NCBI GenBank assembly: GCA_947177415.1
Contig: CAMWUK010000006.1
Span: 1 to 64,000 of the forward strand
Source of the DNA: an uncultured Clostridiaceae bacterium
GTDB taxonomy: Bacteria > Bacillota > Clostridia > Lachnospirales > Lachnospiraceae
Length of the DNA stretch: 64,000 nt
Direction: 5' to 3'
Below are positions 1,524 through 36,467 of this stretch, one piece after another; positions within the stretch are counted from its first letter, which is position 1, and each line of letters starts with the position of its first letter. Both the position numbers and the translations under genes were made by a program. The notes beneath the pieces were generated by a model that saw only the letters and a list, made by a program, of their open reading frames with translations, was not told the DNA's origin and did no database searches.

Positions 1524-3107
1524 GTGGGAATTTATCTGAATCCAAAAAATAAGGGGTTTCAAGAGGCAATTAATTCTGAAATTTATGTAGATAAGACAGG
1601 ATTGATTGCTTGTACAAATCATTTAATAAATACAGAACAAAAGTTTATCTGTGTTAGCAGACCAAGACGTTTCGGAAAGTCTATGGCACTTAAAATGCTT
1701 GCAGCATATTATAGCAGGGGCTATGATTCGTCAGATTTATTTGCAGGATACAAAATAGAAAAAGATAAAACTTTTCAGACTCATTTGAATAAATATGAAG
1801 TAATATTTCTAAATATGCAACAGTTTCTAATAAGGGCAAAAAGAGCAAAAAATATGGAGTTTACGGAATGTCTGGAACAGGTTGTTATTGAGGATATCCG
1901 CAAGGTGTATGGGGAAATGTTTTCGGAGGGGGAAACGATTCTTGCTGCTGTACTGGAACAGATTTATGAAAATACAGATAAACAATTTATTTTCCTCATC
2001 GATGAGTGGGATTGTGTGATGCGTGAAAGGCAGGAATCGGAAGAACTGCAGAAAGAATATCTTGATTTTTTAAGATATCTTTTAAAAGACCAGTCCTATG
2101 TGGCACTTGCCTATATGACAGGAATCCTCCCTGTGAAAAAGTACGGGCAGCATTCGGCACTGAATATGTTCTGGGAATATTCCATGACAAATCAGTATGT
2201 TTTTGAGGAATATACAGGTTTCACAGAAGAGGAAGTAAAGGGATTGTGTGAACGGTATGAGATGGATTTTGCCGAAACCGGAAGTTGGTATGACGGATAT
2301 ATGTTCAAGAGGTTTAAGCACATATACAATCCGAGATCCGTTGTGGCAGCAATGACTTGTGGGGATTTTTCAAGTTATTGGACTTCCACGGAAACCTATG
2401 ATGCACTGAAAGTCTATATGGATATGGATTATGACGGATTGCGGCCGGATATTGTGCAGATGCTTGGTGGAGGGCGTGTCAGAGTGAATACACGCAGTTT
2501 CCGGAATGATATGCGGAATTTCGAATCAAAGGATGATGTGCTGACATTATTGATTCATTTAGGATATCTTGGATATGACTCAGAGACGGAGGAGGTATTT
2601 ATTCCCAACAAGGAGATTGTCAGGGAATTTGAAAATGCCATGAGTGTTGGCGGCTGGCCAGAGGTTATGCGTATCCTGAAGGCATCGGAAAAACTGCTGG
2701 AAGATACTCTGCGTGGTGATGGGGAAAGTGTGGCAAGGGCACTGGATCAGGCACATATGGAAGTATCCTCCATACTGACCTACAATGATGAAAATTCCCT
2801 TGGATGTGCCATTGGGCTTGCCTATTACAGTGCAAGGAAAGACTACAAATTAATCAGGGAACTGCCAACAGGACGTGGCTATGCAGATGTGGTATTTTTG
2901 CCCCTTCCCCATACTAGGAATCCTGCACTCGTAGTAGAACTAAAATATAACAAGACGGCAGATACCGCCATACAGCAGATAAAAGACAGACATTATACAC
3001 AGGCATTGGAAGGGTACAGTGGTGAAATCCTTCTTGTGGGAATCAATTATGATAAGGACAATACGATGAAACCTCATAGCTGTATCATAGAAAGGCAGGA
3101 AATGTAA
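1524..3107 (+). CDS. AAA-ATPase-like protein with C-terminal PD-(D/E)XK nuclease-like domain (paralog 1)
   Basis: SRPRRFGKS Walker A, FIFLIDEWD Walker B, C-terminal GYADVVFLP...ALVVELKYN nuclease-like motif; GTG start with ggaggt RBS. Confidence 0.85.
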   Translation: MGIYLNPKNKGFQEAINSEIYVDKTGLIACTNHLINTEQKFICVSRPRRFGKSMALKMLAAYYSRGYDSSDLFAGYKIEKDKTFQTHLNKYEVIFLNMQQFLIRAKRAKNMEFTECLEQVVIEDIRKVYGEMFSEGETILAAVLEQIYENTDKQFIFLIDEWDCVMRERQESEELQKEYLDFLRYLLKDQSYVALAYMTGILPVKKYGQHSALNMFWEYSMTNQYVFEEYTGFTEEEVKGLCERYEMDFAETGSWYDGYMFKRFKHIYNPRSVVAAMTCGDFSSYWTSTETYDALKVYMDMDYDGLRPDIVQMLGGGRVRVNTRSFRNDMRNFESKDDVLTLLIHLGYLGYDSETEEVFIPNKEIVREFENAMSVGGWPEVMRILKASEKLLEDTLRGDGESVARALDQAHMEVSSILTYNDENSLGCAIGLAYYSARKDYKLIRELPTGRGYADVVFLPLPHTRNPALVVELKYNKTADTAIQQIKDRHYTQALEGYSGEILLVGINYDKDNTMKPHSCIIERQEM

Positions 3108-3115
3108 CTATAAAT

Positions 3116-3380
3116 GTAATTGTTCGTAACAGTTCAGGTAGGTCTGCACACTCCGCTGTGCAGACCGTATAAAAGAATAAAACAGGAAGGGAATGGGGCA
3201 ATTTATATGCGAAGCTTGCCCCATTCCGTAACAGGTCAGCACTCGGCTGAACTGTTACAACTGTTCAGAACATACTCGAGGATTTGCTTGACAAATCCGA
3301 GTTTTACAAGATTTTAGCCCTTCGCTTTGCGAATTTTTATGGGCTAAAATCTCGTATCTGTTCAGGTACTGAACAGATAC
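3116..3380 (+). mobile_element. Type IV palindromic element interrupted by a nested type I element (3126-3258)
   Basis: gtaattgttc...(insert)...aactgttcagaacat...gtatctgttcaggtactgaacagatac; exact 8-bp duplication ctataaat (3108-3115 / 3381-3388). Confidence 0.88.
3126..3258 (+). mobile_element. Type I palindromic MITE-like element, 133 bp, nested in a type IV copy
   Basis: gtaacagttcaggtaggtctgcaca...ctgaactgttac; duplication aattgttc/aactgttc (7/8). Confidence 0.88.
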
Positions 3381-3416
3381 CTATAAATTTCAATACATTT
3401 AAGAGAGGAGATAAAG

Positions 3417-4568
3417 ATGAAAATAGTTTGGTTTTCCATACCAGCACATGGGCACACAAATCCGACATTGAATTTAGTAAAAGAACTTACAGGGGCTGGA
3501 CATGAGGTTACTTATTTTTCTTTTGAACAATTTCGGGAGAAGATAGAAAAAGCAGGAGCAGAGTTTGTTCCTTGCGATTCGTATGATTTTGAAATGGAGG
3601 ATAAAGGAAATGGAGAGAGAATAGGAAAGGATATGGCATTTGCTACAGAGCTTTTAGTTAAGTCAACATTAGCATTAGATGATATGGTAGCAGAGAAAGT
3701 GGCACAGATTAAGCCGGATTTAATTGTATCAGACTCAATTGCATACTGGGGAAAACTTACAGCAATGAAATATAATATTCCGTATGTGTCATCAACTACA
3801 ACATTTGCATTTAACCAATATTCCTCCAAGTATATGAAACAGGGGATTGGAGGATTATTTAAAATGCTCTTCTCAATGCCTAAGATAAATAAAATGATTA
3901 AGAAATTACAGAAGAAAGGATATCCCGTAAAAGGTATTTTGGATATTGTTCAGAATGATAATGAAACCAATACCATTGTATATACATCTAAGGAATTTCA
4001 GCCCTGTGCAGATACATTTTCAGATAAATACTGTTTTATTGGACCTTCTATCCGGTCATTGGAGAGCAGAATAGAAAAAACAGCAGAAAAGACAATTTAT
4101 ATTTCCATGGGAACAGTGATGAAGAATAAAGAAATTTACAGAAACTGCATAGAGGCATATCGGGATACAGACTATCAGGTAATTATTTCTTTAGGAGAGA
4201 ACGAAAATGAATACATAGATTTGCCAGAAAATATTAAGGTATATACCTCAGTAGATCAAATGGCAGTTTTGTCAATCGCAGATGTGTTTCTTACTCATTG
4301 TGGCATGAATTCTGTTTCGGAAGCTTTGTATTATGAAGTTCCATTGATTTTGTTTCCACAGACACCTGAACAGGGAGCCGTTGCAATACGTGCAGAGGAA
4401 CTTGGTGCAGGAATAAAATTACTGACAACCAAGAAAGAGGATATACTTGCAGCTACAGAAAGAATTCTCACAGATAATCAATATAAATTAGCAGCAAAAA
4501 AGATATCAAGTGGATTTAAGCAATGTGGTGGAGCTAAAGCAGCAAGGGAATTTCTTGAAAGGTTATGA
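3417..4568 (+). CDS. MGT/YjiC-family glycosyltransferase (UDP-glucosyltransferase-like)
   Basis: MKIVWFSIPAHGHTNPTLNLVKEL N-terminus and THCGMNSVSEALYYEVPLILFPQTPEQ motif. Confidence 0.88.
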   Translation: MKIVWFSIPAHGHTNPTLNLVKELTGAGHEVTYFSFEQFREKIEKAGAEFVPCDSYDFEMEDKGNGERIGKDMAFATELLVKSTLALDDMVAEKVAQIKPDLIVSDSIAYWGKLTAMKYNIPYVSSTTTFAFNQYSSKYMKQGIGGLFKMLFSMPKINKMIKKLQKKGYPVKGILDIVQNDNETNTIVYTSKEFQPCADTFSDKYCFIGPSIRSLESRIEKTAEKTIYISMGTVMKNKEIYRNCIEAYRDTDYQVIISLGENENEYIDLPENIKVYTSVDQMAVLSIADVFLTHCGMNSVSEALYYEVPLILFPQTPEQGAVAIRAEELGAGIKLLTTKKEDILAATERILTDNQYKLAAKKISSGFKQCGGAKAAREFLERL

Positions 4569-4714: not shown

Positions 4715-5062
4715 TTGACACGAAGATTTATTGTGATAAAATCATAAGGAAAAGATTTTTATAACTTGAAGAAAAAGACGAAGATGGTGTACTGCGAAGA
4801 GCAGAGAGAATAACATTTTCCAACAGAGAGAGGACTGCATGGCTGGAACAGTCCTTTGGTTCAGATGATATTTGAATTTCACACCGGAGTTGTATATCTG
4901 AACGCCTGCCAAGTAGGATATAACGGTTGTGCCCGTTACGCACATAATAAGATGGTAAAGAAGTGTTTTTTAGGAGGCACTTGAAAGATACTGAATCAGG
5001 GTGGTACCACGGAATAGATTTCGTCCCTTGTATGTAGAAATACATACAAGGGATTTCTTTTG
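4715..5062 (+). promoter_or_regulatory. T-box leader (promoter, antiterminator and terminator) upstream of pheS
   Basis: TTGACA (4715) with TAAAAT (4737); T-box core gggtggtaccacgg (4999-5012); terminator cccttgtatgtagaaatacatacaaggg + T-rich (5025-5062). Confidence 0.93.
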
Positions 5063-36439: not shown

Positions 36440-36467
36440 GTAACTGTTCATGGTTCTGAACAGTTAC
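36440..36467. mobile_element. Solo H3 hairpin, 28 bp (minimal element)
   Basis: gtaactgttcatggttctgaacagttac; flanks ggaagaag/gaaagaat (6/8). Confidence 0.65.

What the first reader, a model, noticed from the sequence alone, without database searches (positions are those of the whole stretch)
3108..3388. Nested insertion: type I element inside the left terminal repeat of a type IV element
ctataaat (3108-3115) and ctataaat (3381-3388) bracket a type IV element starting gtaattgttc at 3116 and ending gaacagatac at 3380. Its left terminal repeat is interrupted by a 133-bp type I element (3126-3258), which duplicated aaYtgttc (3118-3125 / 3259-3266). Removing the inner element and one duplicate restores gtaactgttcagaacat. 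This gives a relative chronology of two transposition events.
Basis: seen in the sequence. Interest (0 to 1): 0.78.

Follow-up and report, generated by a model that had tools for sequence, protein, structure and literature searches.

The report
Mini-transposon nested in another mini-transposon

Summary
A 124-bp mini-transposon (type IV) is bracketed by ctataaat (3108-3115, 3381-3388). Its left end is split by a 133-bp type I element (3126-3258) that duplicated AAYTGTTC. The sister genome (flanks 98-99% identical) has a single, unoccupied ctataaat here, so the outer insertion is real and recent.

Even so, it does not look like one fused unit. The inner copies belong to two type I subfamilies, and several composites carry private variants in both inner octamers. 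Type I is also inserted at the same register in unrelated 28-bp palindromic elements. The best reading is recurrent insertion, fixed in register and orientation, into the ends of sibling elements; some spread as a unit remains possible.

All the families share GTWAC/GTATC-WGTTCA ends and 8-bp duplications. These match an IS66-family insertion sequence (single ORF, ISBst12-like ends) in related genera. This draft genome holds only a transposase fragment. The elements are ordinary MITEs; the self-targeting hotspot is the unusual part. The order of outer and inner arrival at this locus is not shown.

The parts
3108..3115 (.). Left target duplication of the outer element, ctataaat, directly after the stop codon of the upstream gene
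   Evidence: sequence; single copy in the sister genome
3116..3125 (+). Outermost 10 bp of the type IV left end, GTAATTGTTC
3118..3125 (+). Left copy of the inner target duplication, AATTGTTC
3126..3258 (+). Inner type I element, 133 bp, subfamily a; two internal stem-loops and a palindromic right end (about 3228-3258)
3259..3266 (+). Right copy of the inner target duplication, AACTGTTC
3259..3380 (+). Rest of the outer type IV element (122 of 124 bp), no difference from the consensus of the genomic copies
3354..3380 (.). 27-bp palindromic right end of type IV, GTATCTGTTCAGGTACTGAACAGATAC
3381..3388 (.). Right target duplication of the outer element, ctataaat
1524..3107 (+). Upstream gene: predicted AAA-ATPase with PD-(D/E)XK nuclease domain (context)
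3417..4568 (+). Downstream gene: macrolide-family glycosyltransferase (context)

Best explanation
Both elements are MITEs (short, non-autonomous) with the ends of an IS66-family insertion sequence of the single-ORF, ISBst12-like kind. A transposase of that kind, supplied in trans, put a type IV copy into ctataaat just behind a stop codon. A type I copy of subfamily a was inserted into base pairs 3-10 of a type IV left end, duplicating AACTGTTC. This register and orientation is a hotspot: a transposition complex carrying type I prefers the terminal repeat of sibling elements (GT|AACTRTTC|A), perhaps because transposase is already bound there. It has been hit repeatedly in type IV ends and in 28-bp palindromic elements. 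Shown: both duplications, the unoccupied outer site in the sister, recurrence at one register, two inner subfamilies, matching ends and 8-bp duplications of the IS66-family elements. Inferred: which transposase acted, the target-capture mechanism, and the order of events at this particular locus.
For: Sister genome has a single ctataaat in 98-99% identical flanks. Pattern GTAAYTRTTH-N(0-20)-GTAACAGTTCAG: 7 of 7 hits in this genome and 4 of 7 in the sister have spacing 0; the other five hits (3 sister, 2 in G003) lie at other spacings; reversed-pattern control 0. In an unselected 0.82 Mb, end-to-end spacing of exactly 10 occurs 8 times against about 2 for each of the spacings 11-37. The same register is hit in type IV ends and in 28-mer palindromes or a type III right end in the sister (L052, L056, L143). 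The inner copy of the window is subfamily a; those of the other four composites and the sister's are subfamily b. Private variants shared by both inner octamers: AACTATTA/AACTATTA in the sister copy L046, AATTGTTT/AATTGTTC in L004. All spacing-0 junctions that still carry a recognisable type I left end have it next to the outer 10 bp. IS66-family protein L172 (NCBIfam NF033517, 8.7e-66; PF03050, 5.5e-34) lies between GTATCTGTTCAGAACCCCC and GTAACTGTTCAGAACCCCC ends. In genome G032, 32 contig-edge ends GTAACTGTTCAG[AT]AC give 13 exact 8-bp duplication pairs, and one side of the pairs lies next to a relative of L172's C-terminus.
Against: The composite recurs at 5 loci here with different outer duplications, as a mobile fused unit would. 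One copy (L005) has the type I left end directly next to the outer duplication AATAATTT, which fits movement from the inner left end to the outer right end. Gene conversion between type I copies could mimic separate subfamilies. A weight matrix from 28 non-nested type I sites ranks the end only in the top 3-16% of genomic positions, so the octamer alone does not explain the hotspot. No intact transposase was found in this draft, only a 53-aa fragment.
Confidence: 0.64

Rival explanations
1. Fused unit: one founding insertion of type I into type IV, after which the 265-bp composite moved as a single element using its outer ends, or the inner left and outer right ends. The window copy then shows one recent transposition, not a local chronology.
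For: Five loci here and one in the sister, most with their own octamer duplication. Outer duplications are perfect at the window, L003 and L004. L005 is flanked by AATAATTT directly at the type I left end and the type IV right end. At the window, L003 and L004 the composite is absent from the sister.
Against: Inner copies of two subfamilies; private variants in both inner octamers of L046 and L004; the outer copy of L002 shares a variant with solo type IV copies L013 and L018. Type I also inserted at the same register in other hosts. L005 can also arise by slippage deletion between the adjacent 10-bp near-repeats GTAACTGTTC/GTAACAGTTC.
Confidence: 0.15
2. Mixture (compatible with the best explanation for the window copy): some composites (L002, L003, L005) descend from one founder and spread as a unit, while the window copy, L004 and the sister copy are separate nested insertions.
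For: Subfamily b inner copies in L002, L003 and L005 with similar junctions, beside the independence signs for the other three.
Against: The elements are short and the trees poorly resolved, so shared descent of these three is not shown; the outer variant of L002 points to yet another origin.
Confidence: 0.4
3. Homologous recombination or gene conversion between dispersed repeats assembled the composite, without transposition of the inner element.
For: Many near-identical copies; deletion between inner-end repeats has evidently happened at one locus (L147 against its sister ortholog L143).
Against: 8-bp duplications flank the inner element at the window (7/8) and exactly in L002, L046, L052 and L056; recombination would not create them in different host sequences.
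Confidence: 0.04

Closest known systems
IS66 family, ISBst12 group (e.g. ISDge4 of Deinococcus geothermalis, PMC12898284)
   Same: 8-bp direct repeats; ISDge4 ends GTGACTACTCAGCA/GTAACTGCTCAGCA resemble GTAACTGTTCAG; single transposase ORF, as in L172.
   Different: The window elements encode nothing; they are 124-145 bp MITEs with internal hairpins. L172 and the G032 elements are relatives in other genera, not in this genome.
Bacterial MITEs mobilised in trans (MITEPsy1, PMC3189936; MITECca01, PMC9769881)
   Same: Short, inverted terminal repeats, no transposase gene, ends shared with a parental IS; MITECca01 is high-copy and reported to disrupt other mobile elements.
   Different: MITEPsy1 is tied to an IS5-like element and MITECca01 to an IS982 element. 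The passages I read report no fixed-register insertion into a sibling's terminal repeat.
Targeted nesting in plants (LTR retrotransposons, PMC6911290; plant MITE nesting, from my own knowledge)
   Same: Transposons that nest into relatives non-randomly.
   Different: Other element classes; here the target is a single register and orientation inside a 10-12-bp terminal repeat.

Membership tests
MITE (non-autonomous, IS-derived) | Short, no transposase ORF, terminal inverted repeats | tested here: met
   124 and 133 bp, inverted ends, no ORF of 80 aa or more within 3108-3388
MITE (non-autonomous, IS-derived) | Many dispersed copies with target duplications | tested here: met
   89 near full-length copies of four families in 0.82 Mb, mostly with 7-8/8 octamer duplications
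MITE (non-autonomous, IS-derived) | Ends shared with a transposase-encoding element | tested here: met
   GTAWCTGTTCAGAAC ends around the IS66-family ORF in G020; the same ends at IS copies in G032 and G067. All lie in other genera of the same family.
MITE (non-autonomous, IS-derived) | Mobilised in trans by that transposase | not testable with these tools
   Needs an in vivo or in vitro assay
IS66 family (autonomous partner) | DDE_Tnp_IS66 transposase | tested here: met
   L172 protein: NF033517 8.7e-66 over cut-off; PF03050 5.5e-34
IS66 family (autonomous partner) | 8-bp target duplication | tested here: met
   13 exact 8-bp pairs among 32 ends in G032. Not seen at the single L172 copy (2/8).
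IS66 family (autonomous partner) | Canonical terminal repeat GTAAGCG | tested here: not met
   Ends are GTAACTGTTCAG. Canonical GTAAGCGTC ends were found on other IS66 copies in related genera. ISBst12-group ends such as those of ISDge4 are closer.
ISBst12 group of IS66 | Single transposase ORF, no accessory ORFs | tested here: met
   One 487-aa transposase ORF between the ends in L172. Group membership was not confirmed by phylogeny.

The most novel reading that the evidence does not exclude
An IS66-family (ISBst12-like) transposition system targets the terminal repeats of its own kin at one fixed register and orientation. It thereby builds tandem-ended composites that may then move with mixed ends, so new element types are assembled from modules.
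Probability: 0.4. Interest if true: 0.6.

Novelty: new member of a known kind. Interest (0 to 1): 0.42.

Why it matters
IS66-family transposition, and the ISBst12 group in particular, is poorly studied. A genome with several hundred MITEs carrying such ends, insertions that differ between two close species, and a repeatable target register inside the terminal repeat gives a direct handle on target choice. It also cautions that a composite found at many loci does not by itself prove a fused mobile unit, because a hotspot produces the same picture.

Tried and rejected
Plasmid and phage collections: no match to the composite; no exact match to a type IV core in viral contigs. IS66 Pfam search of the own genome: no match; the partner came from relatives. 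Search for a full-length IS with these ends and a perfect octamer duplication in 0.82 Mb of the own genome: only nested MITEs plus probable chance pairs. Target-site weight matrix as the sole cause of the hotspot: too weak. Rfam: no family matches any of these elements at gathering scores. Paper searches for bacterial MITEs nested in sibling ends found nothing on the point; the library lacks most subscription papers.

Full report
OBSERVATION. Every coordinate in the finding checks out. The outer duplication ctataaat starts directly after the stop codon of the AAA-ATPase/PD-(D/E)XK gene (1524-3107) and lies upstream of a macrolide-family glycosyltransferase gene (3417-4568). Type IV without the insert is 124 bp; type I is 133 bp. 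Elements of this superfamily are dense in the window: 28 exact GTAACNGTTCA against 0.09 expected.

CENSUS. In 0.82 Mb of the own genome (window plus 40 stretches) I found 23 type I, 6 type IV, 35 type III and 25 type II near full-length copies, most with 7-8/8 octamer duplications. The type IV hits include two composite copies. Scaled to 4.63 Mb this is roughly 500 copies of these four families (extrapolation). They share a plan (read from the sequences): a left terminal repeat, one or two stem-loops, and a palindromic right end of about 27-31 bp that also occurs alone (e.g. 36440-36467).

EMPTY SITE. The sister genome G002 (the same sequence is found in the named record JAAVHR010000016.1, isolate Mgla_MAG_39-bin_2) has flanks 98-99% identical and a single ctataaat followed by TTCAATAC. 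It carries a different element of the same superfamily just upstream. The composite at L004 (C58) also has a single, unoccupied AATATTCC in the sister, with a separate type I insertion a few bases away. The L003 site (C56) lacks the composite in the sister but holds another repeat family.

RECURRENCE. The composite lies at five places in this genome: window; L002 (C2, outer duplication AATAAAAA/AATAGAAA, 7/8); L003 (C56, ATTGAATT); L004 (C58, AATATTCC); L005 (C137, AATAATTT). One more is in the sister (L046, outer flanks 6/8). However, the window's inner copy belongs to type I subfamily a, with diagnostic changes along the element including a paired change in a stem, while the other five inner copies are subfamily b. 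L046 has AACTATTA in both inner octamers, L004 has the AATTGTT variant in both, and the outer part of L002 shares a variant with solo type IV copies L013 and L018. In the sister, type I sits at the same register in 28-mer palindromes or a type III right end (L052, L056, L143). I therefore count at least two independent events into type IV (subfamilies) and probably four or more, plus three into other hosts. The trees are poorly resolved and gene conversion is not excluded.

REGISTER. For GTAAYTRTTH-N(0-20)-GTAACAGTTCAG, all 7 hits in this genome and 4 of 7 in the sister have spacing 0; G003 has two hits, neither at 0. The hits are not all independent events and some are truncated or scarred. 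In the unselected 0.82 Mb, spacing 10 between 10-mer ends on one strand occurs 8 times against about 2 per neighbouring spacing; some of the 8 are weak matches by eye. A type I target matrix places these sites in the top 3-16% of positions and mostly disfavours the opposite orientation. It fits the orientation bias but is too weak to explain the hotspot. Binding of transposase to the target end is my inference.

LOSS. L147 (this genome, C20) and L143 (sister) are orthologs, 97.6-97.7% identical over about 1.4-1.5 kb on each side. The sister has type I nested in a 28-mer. This genome keeps GTAACTGTTC-GTAACAGTTCAG-AACTATG..., as expected if the inner element was deleted between its left end and the right octamer. 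Other 10-bp tandem ends may be similar scars.

TRANSPOSASE. PF03050 finds nothing in this genome. Among relatives, one IS66 protein (L172, 487 aa, single ORF) lies between GTATCTGTTCAGAACCCCC and GTAACTGTTCAGAACCCCC ends; NCBIfam calls it IS66 family at 8.7e-66. Its own flanks match only 2/8, so that copy gives no duplication. In G032, 32 ends of two related elements pair up by 13 exact 8-bp duplications, and one end of each element type is next to a relative of the L172 C-terminus. This genome has only a 53-aa, 64% identical fragment (C56:25332-25490). The ends resemble those of ISDge4 of the ISBst12 group (PMC12898284) rather than canonical GTAAGCG (PMC11946415). The partner that moved these MITEs is thus identified by kind, not as an active gene here.

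VERDICT. A true nested insertion of two IS66-type MITEs; the outer event is shown by the empty site, and the inner-second order at this locus is the likeliest but unproven reading. The notable point is a self-targeting hotspot.

Noticed in passing
L143 (sister C84:3736) and L147 (own C20:8076-8097): Orthologous pair: type I nested in a 28-mer palindrome in the sister, apparently deleted in this genome leaving a 10-bp tandem end as a scar.
   Followed up: yes
L005, 1501-1763 (C137:6454-6716): Composite with the octamer AATAATTT directly at the type I left end and the type IV right end: mixed-end movement or slippage deletion.
   Followed up: partly
L082 about 1285-1505 (sister) and L083 (G003): A different repeat of about 200 bp with ends like TAGGYAATTGCGAAACTC and apparent 12-14-bp duplications, at or near the sites that composites L003 and L002 occupy in this genome.
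   Followed up: no
L107:1282-1620: A 339-bp nested element: type II inside another GTAACAGTTCAGCCGG element flanked by a perfect ATAAATTT duplication.
   Followed up: no
L111:15345-15489, L127:7920, L120:18309, L122:1467-1599: Other nested insertions of type II or type I into sibling elements at different registers (AACAGTAA, TGTAACAG, CAGTTCAG, CCAAGAAC), so not all nesting uses the hotspot.
   Followed up: partly
window 36440-36467: Solitary 28-bp palindrome GTAACTGTTCATGGTTCTGAACAGTTAC, the same as the right end of type III; possibly a minimal element.
   Followed up: no
window 4772-5031: T-box leader (RF00230) upstream of a gene that looks like a phenylalanyl-tRNA synthetase subunit.
   Followed up: no
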